From the NCBI RefSeq assembly GCF_015668515.1, contig NZ_JADPFO010000001.1, positions 1-64,000 on the forward strand: DNA of 64,000 nt, in the 5' to 3' direction. The notes under the pieces are model-generated. The model saw only the letters and a list, made by a program, of their open reading frames with translations. It was not told the DNA's origin and made no database searches. Both the position numbers and the translations under genes were made by a program. Positions within the stretch are counted from its first letter, which is position 1, and every line of letters starts with the position of its first letter. Shown here one piece after another: positions 20,720 through 28,170 of this stretch. The stretch comes from Paraclostridium tenue (GTDB taxonomy: Bacteria; Bacillota; Clostridia; Peptostreptococcales; Peptostreptococcaceae).

Positions 20720-21421
20720 TTATATAGCATGCCTGTATTCCTTAGGAGTCATACCATTATACTTTTTAAATATAGAAGAATAATAAGTATGATTATTATA
20801 ACCTACTGATAATGCAACATCTAAAATAGAATCATTATTTTCAAGTAAATATTCCTTACTTTTTTCAACCCTAATTCTATTTAAAAAATCAGAAAATGTA
20901 TAACCAGTTTCTTTTTTAAATACATGGCAAAAATAACTTTTATTCAAGTTTAGATACTCACAAACTGTATCTAATTTTATATCTGTATAATAGTTTCTAT
21001 GTATAAAGTCTATTGCATCTTTTATATATGTGCTAAATTTTGCTTTTTTAGAAAGCTTATCTTTTATCATATTCTCTAGCATTGAAGTTATATATTCTAC
21101 GCATGAGTGGGGTTTATATGGAATATCAAATTCTTTAAAATCATTTTCAGTTTTAAATGGACCTATTAAAAAATATCCATTTTTCTTAGGATTATTTAAT
21201 ATAGGCATTATTATAAAATGAATATTATTTATATACTTAAGGTTAATATTAGATATTAAATTTGGACTTATATCATTTAATACACCTAAGTTTTTACATA
21301 GTTTATAAAGATTATCAGAGTACCCCTTACTGTTTATTACTTTCAAATTGTTATCTAAAAGCTGTATAGGTATTTCTACACAAGCATAAAAATCACATAA
21401 TATATTTTCAAAACACTTCAT
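20720..21421 (-). CDS. AraC-family regulator, divergent from haem/nitrogenase-like cluster
   Basis: 233 residues. The C-terminal ~100 residues form the AraC/XylS double HTH (YTDIKLDTVCEYLNLNKSYF, CHVFKKETGYTFSDFLNRIR, ILDVALSVGYNNHTYYSSIF, KKYNGMTPKEYR). The N-terminal half is a divergent sensor-like domain (IQLLDNNLKVINSKGYSD; IMPILNNPKKNGYFLIGPF) that may bind a small ligand. It is transcribed away from the NifH-like gene across a 156-base gap holding a Fur box, so it is a candidate activator of that operon. Its ligand, possibly a tetrapyrrole, is inferred from context only. Confidence 0.85.
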   Translation of the reverse strand: MKCFENILCDFYACVEIPIQLLDNNLKVINSKGYSDNLYKLCKNLGVLNDISPNLISNINLKYINNIHFIIMPILNNPKKNGYFLIGPFKTENDFKEFDIPYKPHSCVEYITSMLENMIKDKLSKKAKFSTYIKDAIDFIHRNYYTDIKLDTVCEYLNLNKSYFCHVFKKETGYTFSDFLNRIRVEKSKEYLLENNDSILDVALSVGYNNHTYYSSIFKKYNGMTPKEYRHAI

Positions 21422-21514
21422 TAATCAATCTCCTTTTAATACGAATATATTTATAAAATTCAATAATATAGTTAAAGAAATAAATTTCAATAGATTATAA
21501 AATGTAATTGTAAA

Positions 21515-21529
21515 TGATAATTAATATCA
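21515..21529. promoter_or_regulatory. Fur box
   Basis: TGATAATTAATATCA matches the 7-1-7 Fur consensus TGATAATNATTATCA at 14 of 15 positions. It sits 49 bases upstream of the NifH-like gene and in the gap shared with araC. It predicts repression by Fur when iron is plentiful. Confidence 0.7.
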
Positions 21530-21577
21530 AATAAAATAAACATAATAATATTATGAAAGAAATTGAGGGGAAAGTCA

Positions 21578-22321
21578 ATGAGAAAAATAGCTATATACGG
21601 AAAAGGTGGTATAGGAAAATCAACTACTACATCAAATTTATCCGCAGCTTTATCGAATTTAGGATATAAGGTAATGCAAATAGGATGTGATCCTAAAGCA
21701 GATTCTACTAAAAACTTAATGAAAGGTGAATTTATACCTACAGTACTAGATGTAATGGATAAAAAAGGTGATGAAGTTAAGTTAGAAGATATAGTATTTG
21801 AAGGATATAATGGAGTGCTTTGTGTGGAGGCAGGAGGACCAACACCAGGAGTTGGGTGTGCAGGTAGAGGAATAATAGCAGCTTTTGAAAAGCTAGAAGA
21901 ATTAAATGCATTTGAAAATTATAAGCCAGACATAGTTATATATGATGTACTTGGAGATGTTGTATGTGGAGGATTTTCAATGCCAATAAGAAATGGATAT
22001 GCTAAAGAAGTATATATAGTAACATCTGGAGAAATGATGTCTATGTATGCAGCAAGCAACATTTCAACTGCTGTAAATCAATTTAAAAATAGAGGATATG
22101 CATCTTTAAAAGGTCTTATATTAAATGCTAAAAACGTTGAAAATGAAATAGATTTAGTTGAGAATTTAGCAAATGAAATAGATAGTGAAGTATTTCATTA
22201 TGTACCAAGAGAAAAAATGGTTCAAATATCAGAAAATGATGGAAAGACAGTTATAGAAAAAGATAAAAATTGCGAAATGGCAAATGTTTACTTAGAATTA
22301 GCTAAAAAGATAGTAGGTTAA
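21578..22321 (+). CDS. NifH-like ATP-dependent reductase
   Basis: 247 residues, shorter than true NifH. P-loop GKGGIGKST (residues 8-16), [11 protein letters not shown] switch region, and both Cys that hold the inter-subunit 4Fe-4S cluster: [12 protein letters not shown] (C94) and [15 protein letters not shown] (C130). It would hydrolyse ATP to drive electrons into the NifD/K-like partner encoded downstream. No nif assembly genes are present, so dinitrogen fixation is unlikely; it belongs with the nitrogenase-like reductases (as in chlorophyll, F430 and sulfur metabolism). ATG 21578 has GAGGGG 7 bases before it. First gene of a seven-gene operon behind a Fur box. Confidence 0.9.
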
Positions 22322-22377
22322 AAACAAATAAATAAAACAAATAAAATAAAACAAAGTAATTACGGAGGGGAAATATT

Positions 22378-23268
22378 ATGAAATTTAGAAAGTTAGCATC
22401 AGTTTTTATGGTATCAGCATTATTTTTAACAGGATGCCAAGCATCAAGTACAGGTCAAGATAAAGAAAGTAGTAAAGATAATAAAAAAGTTAGTGTTGTT
22501 TCGGCAACAGTATCAGCAACTCAAGTTTTAGATAAATTAGATGCAAATGTTTTAGGTGTTCCTACAACTAAAATGGATTTACCTGAAAAGCTTAAAGATT
22601 TGCCAAAGGTTGGGCAAGCAATGAGTCCAGATTTAGAAATAGTAGCATCATTAGAGCCAGATGTGTTCGTTATGGATAATATGTTTAAGGAAAAAGTTGA
22701 AGAAAGTATGAAAAAGTATGATTTAAATACGTTCTTCTTTGATACAAGTACATATACAAACTTTGTAAATAGTATAAAAAAATTAGGAGCTGAGATTAAT
22801 CAAACAGAAGAAGCTACAAAACTTGTAAATGAATTAAAAGAGGTAGAAAAAGAAGCAGTTAAAAATAAAAATGGAGAAGCTCCTACAGTAGCGATAATAT
22901 TTGGTGGAGGAGAAAACTTCATGTTAGCTACTGAAACATCTTACTTAGGGGATTTAGCTAAGACTGTTGGGGCTAAAAATATAACTAGTAATTTAGATAC
23001 AAATGTGAAATCTCCATATATACAATTTAGTTTAGAGCAAATATTAGAACAAAATCCTGATTACATATTAAGATTTGCACATGGAGAAATAGAGCAAACT
23101 AAGAAAGCTTTTGATACAGCTTTTGATAAAAATCCAGCATATAAAGAATTAGATGCTGTTAAAAACAACAAAGTAATAGATTTAGATCCAAGTATATTTA
23201 ATGTATCTGCTAACTTACAAGTTAAAGAAGCTATAAAAACTCTTGGAGAAACATTCTACGGTAAATAA
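22378..23268 (+). CDS. IsdE-like haem-binding lipoprotein of ABC importer
   Basis: 296 residues. A signal peptide with lipobox LTGC (C20) precedes a class III binding protein of the FecB/IsdE type. It resembles staphylococcal IsdE along its length (VLDKLDANVLGVPTT, LKDLPKVGQAMSPDLE, TSYLGDLAKTVGAKNI, PDYILRFAHGE). IsdE binds haem iron through a Met in GQxM and a His in LRxxHG; both are present here, as M82 in GQAMSP and H235 in LRFAHG. Haem is therefore the favoured ligand; a corrinoid or other metallo-tetrapyrrole remains possible. It lies on the outer membrane face and passes the ligand to the permease encoded next. Confidence 0.87.
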   Translation: MKFRKLASVFMVSALFLTGCQASSTGQDKESSKDNKKVSVVSATVSATQVLDKLDANVLGVPTTKMDLPEKLKDLPKVGQAMSPDLEIVASLEPDVFVMDNMFKEKVEESMKKYDLNTFFFDTSTYTNFVNSIKKLGAEINQTEEATKLVNELKEVEKEAVKNKNGEAPTVAIIFGGGENFMLATETSYLGDLAKTVGAKNITSNLDTNVKSPYIQFSLEQILEQNPDYILRFAHGEIEQTKKAFDTAFDKNPAYKELDAVKNNKVIDLDPSIFNVSANLQVKEAIKTLGETFYGK

Positions 23269-23270
23269 TT

Positions 23271-24254
23271 ATGAAACTTAATAAAAAGTATTTAACAATA
23301 GGAATATCATTAATATTGCTACTTATCCTTTTAGTTTTACTAACTACTGTTGGTAGTGTTAACTTAAGTTTTGGTGAGATTATTAGTGCACTTATTAATG
23401 ATGATAATAAAATGGTAACTACCATAGTTTATAAAATGAGATTACCAAGAAACATACTGGCTGTATTAGTTGGAGCTAATTTAGCTGTAAGTGGAGTTTT
23501 ACTTCAGTCAGTTATGAAAAATCCATTGGCAGACCCTGGGATAACTGGGGTTTCCACTGGAGCTAGTGTTGCAGCAATTATTATATTACTAGTTGCACCA
23601 CAATTTACAAACATATTGCCAATAGCAGCTTTCATAGGAGGAGCTATAGCTTGTATGTTGGTATTTTTAATGGCTTATAAAAATGGATTAAAACCAGGTA
23701 GGATAGTTTTAGCAGGGGTAGCTATAAACACTATATTAGGAGGGGTAATTTCATATTTATCAACTATGTATAGTGACAGAATCCAAAGTGCTATGCTTTG
23801 GTTAAATGGTAGTTTGGCTACTAAAACTTGGGCAGATGTTGAAATGTTATTTATATATTCAATAGTAGGACTTATAGTATCACTACTTCTTATAAGAAGT
23901 GCAAATGTATTACAACTAGGTGATGATGCAGCTACAAACCTAGGATTTAATGTTAACTTAACTAGATTATTAATATCGGTAGTTGCAGTATTTTTAGCAG
24001 CAACTTCAACAGCAGTAGTTGGAGTGATAAGCTTTGTAGGGCTTATAGTACCACACATATCAAGAATGATAATGGGAAGTGACCATAAATTTACTATACC
24101 TTTTAGTATTATTTTAGGAAGTATGGTGCTTTTAGTTGCAGATACTCTAGGAAGAACTATAGGAGGAGCAGTAGAAATACCAGTTGGTGTAATAATGTCT
24201 ATAGTTGGAGGACCATTCTTTTTATATTTATTAAGAAAGAGAGGTAACTTTTAA
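23271..24254 (+). CDS. FecCD-type permease of haem ABC importer
   Basis: 327 residues with about ten membrane helices and the FecCD signatures RLPRNILAVLVGANLAVSGV, QSVMKNPLADPGITGVSTGA, GDDAATNLGFNVNLTRLL and ISFVGLIVPHISRMIMGSDH. It forms the membrane channel for the lipoprotein encoded upstream. It begins 2 bases after that gene, and its stop codon overlaps the ATPase start (TAATG). Confidence 0.93.
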   Translation: MKLNKKYLTIGISLILLLILLVLLTTVGSVNLSFGEIISALINDDNKMVTTIVYKMRLPRNILAVLVGANLAVSGVLLQSVMKNPLADPGITGVSTGASVAAIIILLVAPQFTNILPIAAFIGGAIACMLVFLMAYKNGLKPGRIVLAGVAINTILGGVISYLSTMYSDRIQSAMLWLNGSLATKTWADVEMLFIYSIVGLIVSLLLIRSANVLQLGDDAATNLGFNVNLTRLLISVVAVFLAATSTAVVGVISFVGLIVPHISRMIMGSDHKFTIPFSIILGSMVLLVADTLGRTIGGAVEIPVGVIMSIVGGPFFLYLLRKRGNF

Positions 24255-25039
24255 TGATTAGCTGTGAAAATTTAAAAGTTGGATATGAAGAAAGAGTAAT
24301 AATTGATAACTTAAGTTTAAGCATTAAAAAAGGTGAAGTAGTGTCTATAATAGGACCTAATGGATGTGGAAAATCTACACTACTTAAAAGTTTATCTAGG
24401 ATGATAAAACCAATAAGTGGTGATATATATATACAAAATGAAAATATAAAAAGTTTAAAAAGTAAAACTATATCTCAGAAGGTGTGTTTATTATCTCAGC
24501 ATAATGATGCACCTGGAGATTTAACTGTTGAAGAATTAGTTTACTTTGGAAGAATACCTCATAAAAAATGGTATGAAAGTAAAAGTAAATCAGATGAAGA
24601 ATTAGTTAATTGGGCAATAGAAAATACAGGATTAACAAGATATAAAAACACTCCTATAAGTTCATTATCAGGAGGAGAAAGACAAAGGGCATATATTGCT
24701 CAAGCTCTTTGCCAAAAACCAGATGTTCTTTTATTAGATGAGCCAACTACTTATTTGGATATATCTTATCAATTAGAACTTATGGAATTAGTAAGAGAAA
24801 TAAATGAAAAGCTTAATATAACAATAGTTATGGTGCTTCATGAACTAAACCAAGCAAGCAAGTATAGTGATAGGCTAGTTATTATGAAAAGTGGGGAGAT
24901 TGTTTCTGATGGGTGCCCAAAAGAGATAATAAATAAAGAAACTATTAAAAAGGTATATAACATAGATTGTGATATAGATAATGATCCAATTTCTAATAAG
25001 CCAAGAATACATCCTATTCAAACAATAAAAATAGCTTAG
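24254..25039 (+). CDS. ATPase of haem/siderophore-type ABC importer
   Basis: 261 residues. Walker A GPNGCGKST, signature LSGGERQRAYIAQAL, Walker B VLLLDEPTTYLDI, and switch His in LHELNQASKYSD, all typical of FecE/FhuC-type ATPases. It powers uptake through the permease encoded just upstream and overlaps it by one base. The transporter genes sit inside the nitrogenase-like operon rather than beside it, which links import to the reductase. Confidence 0.94.
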   Translation: MISCENLKVGYEERVIIDNLSLSIKKGEVVSIIGPNGCGKSTLLKSLSRMIKPISGDIYIQNENIKSLKSKTISQKVCLLSQHNDAPGDLTVEELVYFGRIPHKKWYESKSKSDEELVNWAIENTGLTRYKNTPISSLSGGERQRAYIAQALCQKPDVLLLDEPTTYLDISYQLELMELVREINEKLNITIVMVLHELNQASKYSDRLVIMKSGEIVSDGCPKEIINKETIKKVYNIDCDIDNDPISNKPRIHPIQTIKIA

Positions 25040-25053
25040 GGAAAGGAATAAAT

Positions 25054-26343
25054 ATGTATAGTTTAGACGTTTTAAATAAATTAGATGAAATAAATGATGA
25101 TAAAGATATAAAATCTTTATCACATGCAATATTTCCAGGGACACACTGTCCATTATTTGGGGTAGCGCTTACAGCAAGTTATATAAAAAATATGCCATTA
25201 GTAGTTGTTGGAACTAGCGAATGCACATATTATACTAAAAACTTTGCATATCATAGGCAAAAGGGGAATGATAGTGTATATTCAATAGCACTTAAAGAAA
25301 AAGATGTAGTGTTTGGAGCTCAAAAAAAAGTTGAAAAAGCTATAAAACAAATTATAGAAATAGAAAATCCAGATGCGATAATGATAGTTACAACTTGTGT
25401 TCCAGAACTTATAGGAGAAGATTATTCATCAATTGAATACAGCTTAAGTGAAGAAGTTGATATACCAATATTTGTAGTAAATACAGAGCATTTTAAATGT
25501 AATTCTCATATACCAGGAATGACTAGAGCTTTAAAATCTTTAGGTAGTGCTATGAGTAAATCAGAAACTCAAGAAGGTGTAAATATATTAGGTCATAGAC
25601 AAGCAGAAGTTGAAAAAACTGAACTTGTAAAAATACTTAAAGATAACAACATAAAAATAAATACTGTTATACCATCTAAGTGTGATATAGAAGATATTAA
25701 AAATGCTTCAAGTGCAAAGTTAAATATAGTAACTGATATGATAGCACTAGATTTAGCTGAGTATATGAAAAAGAAGTTTGATATAGATTATATATACTTT
25801 GATAAGCACATGAACAAAGAAATAATATTTAAAAACTATGAAAAATTAGGTGAAATATTAGATATAAATTTAAATGAAAAATTAAATGAAGAAAGAAAAA
25901 TGTATGATGAACTTTTCTTAAGTTTAAGTGAAATTTTAAAAGATAAAAAATTAATATATGGAAATACTCCAATGATGTCTTTTGAAACAGTGGACTTTTT
26001 AAGTGATTTAGGAGCAATTCCTTTATTTGTTCAAGTTAGAGAATTATATGAACAAGATAAAGTCTTTAAAGAAAACTTAATTAAAAAAGGATACAATCCA
26101 TATATAAGTAGAATAGCAAATATTGCTCCACTTAGACATTTATATGACACTATAGGAGCTGATTTATATATAGGTCATGAAAATCCTATGTTACTTAAAG
26201 AAAAAGGTCTTATGCAAATAACTCTTGATTCACATGCACAAAAAATTGGATATGAGTTACCAATAGGTATGATGAAAGATTTAATAAAATTATTTGAAAT
26301 GAAAAACAACAATAGGGGAGGGATGATGCATGCAAGCGTATAA
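25054..26343 (+). CDS. NifD-like catalytic subunit of nitrogenase-like reductase
   Basis: 429 residues, similar to NifD/NifE/BchN-type subunits. All three Cys that bind the P-cluster-type iron-sulfur centre are kept: FPGTHCPLFG (C32), VVGTSECTYY (C57, 25 residues on as in NifD) and VTTCVPELIGEDY (C115). VVFGAQKKVEKAI fits the conserved region after the second Cys. It is shorter than NifD and no cofactor-assembly genes accompany it, so a FeMo-type cofactor is not expected; the substrate pocket may take a tetrapyrrole, as in dark-operative reductases. The gene overlaps the NifK-like gene by 14 bases. Confidence 0.87.
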   Translation: MYSLDVLNKLDEINDDKDIKSLSHAIFPGTHCPLFGVALTASYIKNMPLVVVGTSECTYYTKNFAYHRQKGNDSVYSIALKEKDVVFGAQKKVEKAIKQIIEIENPDAIMIVTTCVPELIGEDYSSIEYSLSEEVDIPIFVVNTEHFKCNSHIPGMTRALKSLGSAMSKSETQEGVNILGHRQAEVEKTELVKILKDNNIKINTVIPSKCDIEDIKNASSAKLNIVTDMIALDLAEYMKKKFDIDYIYFDKHMNKEIIFKNYEKLGEILDINLNEKLNEERKMYDELFLSLSEILKDKKLIYGNTPMMSFETVDFLSDLGAIPLFVQVRELYEQDKVFKENLIKKGYNPYISRIANIAPLRHLYDTIGADLYIGHENPMLLKEKGLMQITLDSHAQKIGYELPIGMMKDLIKLFEMKNNNRGGMMHASV

Positions 26344-27541
26344 GTATTTCCCAGTGGCAAATGATAGAATGGGGATAATTTGGACATTATCTTCTGTAAA
26401 AGATGCTTGCGTTATAGAGTTTGGACCAGCAGGAACAACTCACTATGCAGTAGAAGGTATAGGAAGTTTAAATGGTGAAGATGAAGCAAAAATATATTCT
26501 ACTCATATGGACCAAAGTGATGTTACTTTTGGAAAATATGAAAGACTTGAAAAAGCAATAGTAGAAATTGATGAAAATATTTCACCTAAATACATATTTG
26601 TTATGGCATCATCAATATCATCAATTATTGGAGCTGATATAATAAGTGTATGTGAAACTTTGAAAAATTCAACAAATGCAAAGTTAATACCAATAACTAC
26701 AGGTGGATTAAAAGATGATTACAATGTAGGGGTAGAGTATGCATTAGAGATGTTAGTTAGTGAAATTGTAAAGGAAAATTCTAAGGATATAAATAAATAT
26801 AATATATTAGGATCTAATATTGATAAGTATAATTATTTATCTGATACAAAAGAGATAGAAAGAATTATGAAAGGTTTATTTGATAAAGAATTAAATACAA
26901 CTTTTACAGCTAATACAAGTATAGAAGAAATTGAAAATGCATCAAAAGCATCATTAAATATAGTAATTAGAAAAGAAGCTTTAAAAGCTGCTGAGTATAT
27001 GAAAGAAAAGTATAACATTCCTTATGTTTATAAGAATATATATGGATTAAAAAATACTATTAAATTTATAGAAGCTGTTAAACAAATGGATGGATATGAA
27101 TTAAATGAAGAAAAGTACAATGAAGAAATAAATTTTGTTAAGAAAAATATGTTTGGAATAAAAAGAAAGTTTTATTTCTATGAAGAAACTAAAGACTGTG
27201 CTGTGTTTGGTGATTATGACACAGTTATAGGAATTAGTGATATGTTAAGTGAATTAGGATTTAATATTGATAGAAAAGAAATCCTTTATAAAACTAATTG
27301 TGAAGATGAAGAAATTTTAATAAGTACTTCAGAGTTAGAGAGAATGAAGTATTTAAAAGATAAAGAATTATTAATGCTTTTAGGTGATGGACCTAGTATA
27401 GATATGAATCATAATTCAAAGTTAGATTTACAAGTTAGTAATCCGAATTTAGAGAAGATAAATATATATCCATATACTCCTTTTGTTGGCTTTAGAGGAT
27501 GTTTATATATTATGGAAAAGATTTTAAATATAAAAGCTTAG
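26330..27541 (+). CDS. NifK-like subunit lacking canonical cluster cysteines
   Basis: 403 residues, the beta-type partner of the protein at 25054 (IEFGPAGTTHYAVEGIG, DVTFGKYERLEKAI, MASSISSIIGADI, TPFVGFRGCLYIMEKIL). By eye, the three NifK Cys positions are replaced: N11 for the first, T36 in GPAGT for the second, and Ile in ASSISSIIGAD for the third. A separate C27 lies in DACVIEF. The inter-subunit cluster would then be held asymmetrically, with three Cys from the D-like protein, comparable to BchNB where BchB supplies an Asp. GGGAGG precedes the ATG inside the upstream gene. Confidence 0.85.
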   Translation: MQAYKYFPVANDRMGIIWTLSSVKDACVIEFGPAGTTHYAVEGIGSLNGEDEAKIYSTHMDQSDVTFGKYERLEKAIVEIDENISPKYIFVMASSISSIIGADIISVCETLKNSTNAKLIPITTGGLKDDYNVGVEYALEMLVSEIVKENSKDINKYNILGSNIDKYNYLSDTKEIERIMKGLFDKELNTTFTANTSIEEIENASKASLNIVIRKEALKAAEYMKEKYNIPYVYKNIYGLKNTIKFIEAVKQMDGYELNEEKYNEEINFVKKNMFGIKRKFYFYEETKDCAVFGDYDTVIGISDMLSELGFNIDRKEILYKTNCEDEEILISTSELERMKYLKDKELLMLLGDGPSIDMNHNSKLDLQVSNPNLEKINIYPYTPFVGFRGCLYIMEKILNIKA

Positions 27542-27551
27542 GAGAGATAAT

Positions 27552-28013
27552 ATGCAAAAGTTATTAAATACACAAAAGAGTTTAATGATAAGTTCATTAA
27601 GTAAAGATAATCAACCAGAAATAAGTTATGCTCCTTTTGTAATGAAGGATAAAGAAATATATATTTATATAAGTAAAGCAGCAAATCATTATTACAATTT
27701 AATTGATAATAAGAATTGTTCAGTTATGGCTATAGAAGATGAAAGTGCATGTAAAACTATATTTGCAAGACAAAGAGTAAGTTTTAATTGTGAAGCAAGT
27801 ATTTTAAAGGAAGATGTTGAAAGTATTTTTGAAGAGTTCGAAAACGTTCACGGATCTTCGATGATGATGGTTTTAAAGAATTTAGATTTTGATGTTTTTA
27901 AGTTAGATATAAAAAGAGGAAGACTTGTTAAAGGTTTTGGGCAAGCTTTTGATATTTTAGTTAATGATGGTGAATTTGAGCTAAACCAAGTTATGGGAAT
28001 GGGTCATAAGTAG
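27552..28013 (+). CDS. HugZ/HutZ-like split-barrel haem-utilisation protein
   Basis: 153 residues of the pyridoxamine-phosphate-oxidase-like split barrel. It matches the haem-utilisation HugZ/HutZ branch: SLSKDNQPEISYAPFV, IYIYISKAANHYYNL, FARQRVSFNCEAS and RGRLVKGFGQAFDI. The protein ends VMGMGHK; HugZ-type proteins use a C-terminal His to bind haem. HutZ and HugZ cleave haem with oxygen; in an anaerobe this copy may instead bind, store or hand over haem or its reduced product. It closes the operon 10 bases after the NifK-like gene, giving the cluster a second haem-linked protein. Confidence 0.85.
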   Translation: MQKLLNTQKSLMISSLSKDNQPEISYAPFVMKDKEIYIYISKAANHYYNLIDNKNCSVMAIEDESACKTIFARQRVSFNCEASILKEDVESIFEEFENVHGSSMMMVLKNLDFDVFKLDIKRGRLVKGFGQAFDILVNDGEFELNQVMGMGHK

Positions 28014-28024
28014 GGCTTTGGGTA

Positions 28025-28112
28025 GTAGTATGATTACAGCACCTTCCTTCACTATAAAGCCTGATAGGGCATAGGCTTTAACGTTTCGTCAGGTTGCTAT
28101 AATCATACTTAC
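28025..28112 (-). repeat. Conserved hairpin element, copy 1
   Basis: An outer inverted repeat (28025-28043 with 28092-28112) encloses a conserved core: TTCCTTCACT, then a stem AAAGCCT/AGGCTTT, then AACGTTTCGTCA. The same core recurs at 58355-58430 with different but paired outer arms. In the minus-strand RNA the single outer mismatch becomes a G-U pair, hinting that this strand is the folded one. Function unknown. Confidence 0.75.
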
Positions 28113-28136
28113 AACTCCTTCGCCAGTTGGAATAAA

Positions 28137-28170
28137 AAAAGAGGATATCGCGAAATACGATATCCTCTTT
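28137..28170. terminator. Terminator after haem/nitrogenase-like operon
   Basis: AAAGAGGATATCG / CGATATCCTCTTT perfect stem with A-run before and T-rich tail after; usable from both sides. Confidence 0.85.

What the first reader, a model, noticed from the sequence alone, without database searches (positions are those of the whole stretch)
25054..27541. Asymmetric iron-sulfur cluster ligands in the NifD/K-like pair
The D-like subunit keeps all three P-cluster Cys (C32, C57, C115, with NifD-like spacing). The K-like subunit has N11, T36 (GPAGT) and Ile at the matching places, plus a displaced C27. Known relatives use three Cys plus one Asp (BchNB). A three-Cys plus Thr, water or C27 arrangement would be a new variant and could tune the redox potential.
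Basis: partly seen in the sequence, partly recalled or inferred. Interest (0 to 1): 0.72.

Follow-up and report, generated by a model that had tools for sequence, protein, structure and literature searches.

The report
Nitrogenase-like enzyme in heme-iron uptake operon
An oxygen-hating gut-type bacterium carries a cousin of nitrogenase inside a gene set for importing heme, which suggests that the enzyme takes iron out of heme by chemically reducing its ring; no enzyme of this kind is known to do that, and its iron-sulfur cluster site has a threonine where relatives use cysteine or aspartate.

Summary
The ligand asymmetry is real. The D-like subunit keeps Cys32, Cys57 and Cys115. The K-like subunit has no Cys at any of the three matching positions: Asn11 (usually Ser), Thr36 and Ser95 (not Ile). 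Thr36 lies exactly where BchB has Asp36 and NifK and BchZ have Cys. It is invariant in 32 of 32 relatives (GPxGTTH motif). Cys27 is not conserved, so it is a poor ligand candidate.

The larger result is the setting. The pair lies in a seven-gene operon: NifH-like protein, IsdE-type heme-binding lipoprotein, FecCD permease, ATPase, D, K, HugZ-like protein. This operon recurs across Clostridia. All 28 scanned substrate-binding proteins match IsdE, and most keep its heme-ligating Met and His. Some loci add NEAT heme-binding proteins with sortase. Others add a flavodoxin related to heme-bound FldH (8G64), with its heme-ligating His invariant. A Fur-like site precedes nflH. The genome lacks NifB and ferrochelatase, and D lacks FeMo-cofactor ligands. 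Most likely NflHDK is an ATP-dependent, DPOR-like reductase acting on imported heme to free iron anaerobically (inferred). I found no such enzyme described. A sister clade has His at position 36 and siderophore-type transporters. Whether Thr36 binds the cluster directly is untested.

The parts
20720..21421 (-). divergent AraC-family regulator
   Evidence: PF12833 E 5e-21; an AraC-tagged gene is divergent or nearby in 19 of 32 T-clade loci
21510..21528 (+). Fur-box-like site GTAAATGATAATTAATATC upstream of nflH
   Evidence: 15/19 match to the Fur consensus, 3% of shuffles as good; similar site upstream in 17 of 29 T-clade loci against 2 of 17 H-clade loci, at a 14/19 and p<=0.05 cut-off
21578..22321 (+). 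nflH: NifH-like reductase (247 aa from the ATG; an in-frame TTG lies at 21563)
   Evidence: PF00142 E 1.6e-99; below every curated NCBIfam cut-off, best CfbC 355.9/402 and NifH 355.1/394; cluster Cys99 and Cys135 invariant in 47 relatives
22378..23268 (+). IsdE-type heme-binding lipoprotein; heme ligands Met82 and His235 retained
   Evidence: TIGR03659 267.7 bits, cut-off 298.65; PDB best hits Lmo2184 3e-53 and IsdE 4e-44; Met/His conservation
23271..24254 (+). FecCD-family permease
   Evidence: PF01032 E 6e-94
24254..25039 (+). ABC transporter ATPase
   Evidence: PF00005 E 8e-36; always present in T-clade loci
25054..26343 (+). nflD: NifD-like subunit with three cluster Cys
   Evidence: PF00148 E 1.3e-59; AlphaFold2 pLDDT 82; PDB matches are nitrogenase-family chains only
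25147..25149 (+). D Cys32 codon (TGT), first cluster ligand
   Evidence: conserved
25222..25224 (+). D Cys57 codon (TGC), second cluster ligand
   Evidence: conserved
25396..25398 (+). D Cys115 codon (TGT), third cluster ligand
   Evidence: conserved
26330..27541 (+). nflK: NifK-like subunit lacking all cluster Cys
   Evidence: PF00148 E 2.8e-66; AlphaFold2 pLDDT 81; DPOR B chains TM about 0.77
26360..26362 (+). K Asn11 codon (AAT), at the first Cys position
   Evidence: Ser in most relatives
26408..26410 (+). K Cys27 codon (TGC), displaced Cys
   Evidence: not conserved: C/Y/A/F
26435..26437 (+). K Thr36 codon (ACA), fourth-ligand position
   Evidence: invariant 32/32; aligned with BchB Asp36 and NifK/BchZ Cys
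26612..26614 (+). K Ser95 codon (TCA), at the third Cys position
   Evidence: Ser/Thr 32/32
27552..28013 (+). HugZ/HutZ-like split-barrel protein with a conserved C-terminal His
   Evidence: TIGR04109 E 4e-39, below cut-off; PDB HugZ, HutZ; His conserved in all 12 rows, some of them duplicates
28138..28170 (-). intrinsic-terminator-like hairpin at the operon end
   Evidence: 14-bp stem plus T run on the minus strand

Best explanation
The operon is an iron-regulated, anaerobic heme-iron acquisition system. An IsdE-type ABC transporter imports heme. NflH, an ATP-driven NifH-like reductase, feeds low-potential electrons one at a time to an NflDK heterotetramer. Each D-K interface holds one [4Fe-4S] cluster bound by three D cysteines, with the fourth iron facing Thr36 of K and bound by Thr-O, by water, or left open. 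No FeMo-type cofactor is present; imported heme (or a heme-derived porphyrin) sits in that cavity, as protochlorophyllide does in DPOR, and its macrocycle is reduced. Loss of aromaticity or ring opening then frees Fe(II). The HugZ-like protein here, or an FldH/HmuF-type heme flavodoxin in other lineages, delivers heme or handles the product. Shown by sequence: operon, family assignments, heme-type receptor, ligand positions, absence of NifB. Inferred: substrate, chemistry, cluster type, and the identity of the fourth ligand.
For: Conserved H-E-P-A-D-K operon in Paraclostridium, Clostridioides, Terrisporobacter, Clostridium, Tissierella and other Clostridia. All 28 scanned T-clade receptors match IsdE, and their profile hits Lmo2184 and IsdE at about 1e-79 to 1e-77, next 1e-30. 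IsdE's heme ligands are kept (Met 25/28, His 26/28), against 0/13 for Met and 0/13 for His in the other clades. NEAT plus sortase in four loci. Flavodoxins in nine T-clade loci are related to heme-bound FldH 8G64 (E 6e-28), and its heme-ligating His134 matches an invariant His in all ten aligned. The Fusobacterium heme operon pairs HugZ and HmuF with the radical-SAM degrader HmuW; no gene resembling this genome's best HutW-like protein was found in the collected loci. The genome lacks NifB and ferrochelatase. D has Asp228 in place of the FeMo-co Cys, and K has no matching ligand. NFLs with only [Fe4S4] clusters and tetrapyrrole sites (DPOR, CfbCD) are the stated precedent (PMC12552129). Fur-like site.
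Against: No biochemistry. BchB's proton donor Asp274 is not kept (Lys/Arg in most K), so the chemistry would differ from DPOR. The window's own operon lacks the flavodoxin and NEAT genes, and no NEAT match was found in the genome, although that search rang in no control genome. The IsdE and HugZ scores lie below NCBI equivalog cut-offs. A ferric-heme reductase or a heme-modifying enzyme would look the same. Structure models are monomers from shallow alignments.
Confidence: 0.7

Rival explanations
1. NflHDK does not attack the ring; it is an ATP-driven reductase of the central metal (Fe(III) to Fe(II) heme) or of a toxic heme-derived product, and iron removal is done by another protein such as the HugZ-like one.
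For: A sister clade (Cys33 and His36 in K) sits with siderophore- or citrate-type receptors and two FecCD permeases, once beside a PF00756 esterase. This would fit a general reductive iron-release role for both clades.
Against: Ferric heme is reduced by ordinary flavin or ferredoxin donors without ATP; superfamily members without an M-cluster are known for tetrapyrrole ring reduction. HugZ-type degradation, as known for the family, needs O2.
Confidence: 0.15
2. The substrate is another tetrapyrrole (cobalamin or another corrinoid, siroheme, coproheme) and the transporter imports that.
For: FecCD transporters also carry B12; 5 of 28 receptors match BtuF weakly.
Against: All receptors match IsdE far better, keep its Met/His pair, and occur with NEAT proteins and heme-type flavodoxins.
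Confidence: 0.08
3. The fourth cluster ligand is Cys27 or another K cysteine.
For: C27 lies nine residues upstream, at a predicted strand start, and is Cys in 24/32.
Against: Tyr, Ala or Phe in the other 8 relatives with the same operon. The only Cys conserved in 32/32 (C108) lies in a predicted helix (H104-111) and falls on no P-cluster Cys position.
Confidence: 0.04
4. The fourth ligand is His38 of the GTTH motif rather than Thr36.
For: H38 is invariant in 32/32 T-clade K; the sister clade has His at position 36.
Against: H38 aligns with the His of NifD GCGHY, which is not a cluster ligand (established knowledge; alignment); the R-clade has Arg there with Thr kept.
Confidence: 0.15

Closest known systems
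DPOR (BchL-BchNB, dark-operative protochlorophyllide oxidoreductase)
   Same: NifH-like ATP-dependent reductase plus two-gene catalytic component; three cluster Cys from the D/N side, none from K at the fourth position; no M-cluster; tetrapyrrole cavity. K matches TIGR01278 in 15/15 aligned relatives.
   Different: Thr instead of Asp36; proton donor Asp274 absent; K about 400 aa against about 515 aa in BchB; far below curated cut-offs; heme-uptake instead of chlorophyll operon.
[quoted passage not shown]
   Same: Group IV NFL acting on a metallated tetrapyrrole; NflH scores best with CfbC (355.9 bits).
   Different: Cfb lacks a K subunit (PMC11423573); here D and K differ; below cut-offs.
MarHDK / IsrHDK / NifDK (cofactor-bearing NFLs and nitrogenase)
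   Same: Same fold and operon layout H-D-K.
   Different: They use NifB-type maturases and P-/M-type clusters; here no NifB in the genome, cofactor Cys replaced by Asp228, all K P-cluster Cys lost.
HmuW/ChuW/HutW anaerobic heme degraders with HmuF/FldH and HugZ
   Same: Same kind of operon partners (heme transporter, heme flavodoxin, HugZ) and presumably same purpose, anaerobic iron release (PMC10404700, PMC12670364).
   Different: Those are radical-SAM methyltransferases; here a nitrogenase-like complex stands in their place.
Isd heme-uptake system
   Same: IsdE-type receptor, FecCD permease; in some loci NEAT surface proteins and sortase.
   Different: No IsdG/IsdI oxygenase seen; the presumed degrader is NflHDK.

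Membership tests
Nitrogenase superfamily (PF00148 / PF00142) | Both catalytic subunits and the reductase match the family profiles and fold | tested here: met
   E 1e-59, 3e-66 and 2e-99; Foldseek top hits all nitrogenase-family chains
Nitrogenase (NifDK) | Six P-cluster Cys, FeMo-co Cys/His ligands, NifB in genome | tested here: not met
   K lacks all three Cys; D has Asp228 at the cofactor Cys and no His; no NifB
DPOR (BchNB) | Three Cys in N plus Asp36 in B | tested here: not met
   Three Cys met, Asp replaced by Thr
DPOR (BchNB) | Curated BchN/BchB cut-off and catalytic Asp274 | tested here: not met
   98.3 bits against 490.35; Lys/Arg at 274
COR (BchYZ) | Cys in Z at the fourth position; curated cut-off | tested here: not met
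   Thr instead; 46.1 bits against 529
CfbCD | Single D-type subunit, curated cut-offs | tested here: not met
   Two subunits; 44.1 bits against 268.4 for CfbD, 355.9 against 402 for CfbC
IsdE heme receptor | TIGR03659 and Met/His heme ligands | tested here: inconclusive
   Best family, but 267.7 against cut-off 298.65; Met82 and His235 present
HugZ/HutZ | Heme-binding split barrel with C-terminal His ligand | tested here: inconclusive
   E 4e-39, below cut-off; conserved C-terminal His
FldH/HmuF heme flavodoxin (relatives' operons) | Flavodoxin fold with His134 heme ligand | tested here: met
   8G64 E 6e-28; His invariant in 10/10
This clade as tetrapyrrole reductase | ATP-dependent reduction of heme | not testable with these tools
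   needs purified protein

The most novel reading that the evidence does not exclude
A new functional branch of the nitrogenase superfamily is dedicated to iron acquisition. One arm (Thr36) reductively degrades heme anaerobically, replacing radical-SAM degraders in many Clostridia. A sister arm (His36 plus Cys33) works with siderophore-type importers. The fourth cluster ligand (Thr, His, Asp or Cys) tracks the substrate class.
Probability: 0.5. Interest if true: 0.9.

Novelty: new variant of a known kind. Interest (0 to 1): 0.78.

Why it matters
Known anaerobic heme degraders are radical-SAM enzymes, with ChuS-type proteins proposed (PMC12670364). Here a nitrogenase-like machine sits in heme-uptake operons of gut-associated Clostridia, including strains labelled Clostridioides difficile, which suggests an unrecognised route from host heme to iron without oxygen. 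It would widen the superfamily from making tetrapyrroles to breaking them down. The natural series Asp, Cys, Thr, His at one cluster-ligand position gives a direct test of how that ligand sets redox potential and chemistry.

Tried and rejected
Viral contigs: no relatives. Plasmids: only NifE/NifK-level hits plus a Sporomusa H-clade operon. HutW-type radical SAM as the heme degrader in this genome: best hit 215.8 bits against cut-off 400; I take it for HemW, not tested further. NEAT in the window genome: none found, but no control genome rang either, so not proof of absence. Rfam in 19.9-30.5 kb: none. FeMo-cofactor hypothesis rejected. C27 ligand rejected by conservation. Superfamily placement by tree: D and K clades well separated, but joins to Bch and Nif rest on long branches and are unsafe. 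No complex modelling was possible, so ligand geometry is unmeasured. Ten literature searches found no report of a heme-linked nitrogenase-like enzyme; the library holds open-licence papers only and no preprints.

Full report
1. The observation. The window encodes two adjacent nitrogenase-component-1 proteins, D (25054-26343, 429 aa) and K (26330-27541, 403 aa), both strong PF00148 matches. D carries Cys32, Cys57 and Cys115. K carries Asn11, Cys27 and Thr36 as reported. I aligned 52 K and 49 D relatives with real BchN, BchB, BchY, BchZ, NifD, NifK, NifE and NifN sequences taken from annotated plasmids. K-Thr36 falls in the column that holds Asp in BchB (PQGDTYA, position 36), Cys in BchZ, NifK, NifD and NifE, and Cys57 of D. 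Profile alignments against solved structures give the same register (GPaGT against HGPIGC). Two corrections follow: the third Cys position is Ser95, not Ile, and Asn11 is usually Ser. Among 32 K relatives of the same clade (non-redundant at locus level only), Thr36, Thr37 and His38 are each invariant, Ser95 is Ser or Thr, and Cys27 is Cys in 24, Tyr in 5, Ala in 2 and Phe in 1. The three D cysteines are invariant, with one incomplete N-terminus. The asymmetry is therefore a family trait, and Cys27 is a poor ligand candidate.

2. The setting. The pair is part of a compact operon, 21578-28013: NifH-like reductase, IsdE-like lipoprotein, FecCD permease, ABC ATPase, D, K, HugZ/HutZ-like protein, with a divergent AraC-family regulator. 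The order H-E-P-A-D-K is kept in Terrisporobacter, strains labelled Clostridioides difficile (CD160, 173070, HC132), Paraclostridium, Clostridium gallinarum, Tissierella and an Oscillospiraceae MAG, and in many further genomes of the family, order and phylum.

3. Two clades, two kinds of transporter. K relatives with EFGPxGTTH (T-clade, 32 loci) always sit with a FecCD permease and an ATPase. All 28 receptors scanned match the heme receptor family IsdE. Their profile hits Listeria Lmo2184 (1.8e-79) and S. aureus IsdE (5e-77), with the next structure at 1.6e-30. The residues aligned with IsdE's heme ligands (Met and His; the ligand identity is from general knowledge, the alignment is) are Met in 25/28 and His in 26/28; in 13 receptors of other clades each is 0/13. 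Four T-clade loci add NEAT-domain proteins and a sortase. Nine carry a HugZ-like protein and nine a Flavodoxin_3 protein. The flavodoxin's best solved relative is 8G64, the heme-bound FldH of Fusobacterium nucleatum (E 6e-28). FldH binds heme iron through His134 (PMC10404700), and the matching His is invariant in all ten flavodoxins aligned, one of which comes from an incomplete locus not counted among the 32. In F. nucleatum the heme operon pairs HugZ and HmuF with the radical-SAM degrader HmuW. A phmmer search with this genome's best HutW-like protein found no such gene in the collected loci. K relatives with EFGCMGH (H-clade, 17 loci) have His at position 36 and Cys at 33. Ten of them have a siderophore- or citrate-type receptor and ten have two FecCD permeases. 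The Sporomusa termitida plasmid copy adds a PF00756 esterase next door and a TonB receptor further along.

4. Cofactors. The genome has no NifB and only these PF00148 genes plus one K paralogue. D has Asp228 where NifD has the FeMo-cofactor Cys (Asp in 30/30 T-clade), and the cofactor His is not matched in D or K. NflH keeps the cluster cysteines Cys99 and Cys135 in 47/47. The expected cofactor content is therefore one [4Fe-4S] in the NflH dimer and one per DK half, as in DPOR, where BchNB uses three Cys plus beta-D36 (PMC12518044). NFLs with only [Fe4S4] clusters, DPOR and CfbCD, have tetrapyrrole binding sites (PMC12552129). BchB's proton donor Asp274 is Lys or Arg in most K, so the reaction is not simply that of DPOR. 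The genome also has no ferrochelatase, so imported heme is more likely an iron source than a recycled product of its own synthesis (inference).

5. Regulation. A 15/19 Fur-like site lies at 21510-21528 ahead of nflH. Comparable sites occur ahead of the operon in 17 of 29 T-clade loci against 2 of 17 H-clade loci, using a 14/19 and p<=0.05 cut-off. These are consensus matches only, and in this AT-rich window the site does not reach the 16/19 threshold of the generic scan.

6. Mechanism. Most likely NflHDK is an ATP-dependent heme reductase or degrader that frees iron without oxygen. Shown: operon content, conservation, receptor type, ligand positions, cofactor absences. Inferred: heme as the substrate of NflDK rather than only of the transporter; ring reduction or opening as the reaction; Fe(II) release. 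For the fourth iron, my estimates are Thr36 as direct ligand about one third, water or an open (substrate-accessible) site about 40 percent, His38 about 15 percent. Nothing here measures them.

7. Membership. It belongs to the nitrogenase superfamily but fails tested defining features of nitrogenase, DPOR, COR and CfbCD. It works most like DPOR (anatomy) and stands where HmuW/ChuW stands (context). Structure models of D and K (pLDDT 82 and 81) match only nitrogenase-family chains, with DPOR B chains at TM 0.75-0.78 to K. The tree separates the D and K clades clearly, but its deeper joins rest on long branches.

8. Novelty. Ten full-text searches found no heme- or siderophore-linked nitrogenase-like enzyme. 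A 2025 review of bacterial heme lists radical-SAM enzymes, and possibly ChuS-type proteins, as anaerobic degraders. The library lacks preprints and most subscription papers, so prior description elsewhere cannot be excluded.

Noticed in passing
L097, L109, L112, L119-L122, L052, L083 (other genomes): Sister clade of NflHDK with K motif GCMGH (His at the fourth-ligand position, Cys33 nearby) in operons with siderophore- or citrate-type receptors and two FecCD permeases; one copy on a Sporomusa termitida plasmid next to a PF00756 esterase.
   Followed up: partly
G000:C10:1270030-1271220 (L123), also L124-L126: A solitary K paralogue without D, conserved in the window's genus (65% identical here). 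Its cluster motifs are mostly degraded (FEPVKNTN) but intact in one species (GTIGTTH); decay or a new role is open.
   Followed up: partly
L013 / L127 (Paraclostridium benzoelyticum JC272): The nflK gene is interrupted into two open pieces in this assembly. The contig matches one of the window-genus genomes by length and gene content, which places the window in Paraclostridium.
   Followed up: partly
window 28016-28134: Strongly folding intergenic element just after the operon (z -6.2 on the minus strand), no Rfam match, with about ten partial copies dispersed in the genome: a palindromic repeat family.
   Followed up: partly
L048, L115: A third small clade with K motif GPEGTTR (Thr kept, Arg instead of His38), with a different receptor downstream.
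   Followed up: no
L011, L014, L107: Fragmentary or divergent relatives; in L107 the order is D-K-H with K motif not matching any of the three clades.
   Followed up: no
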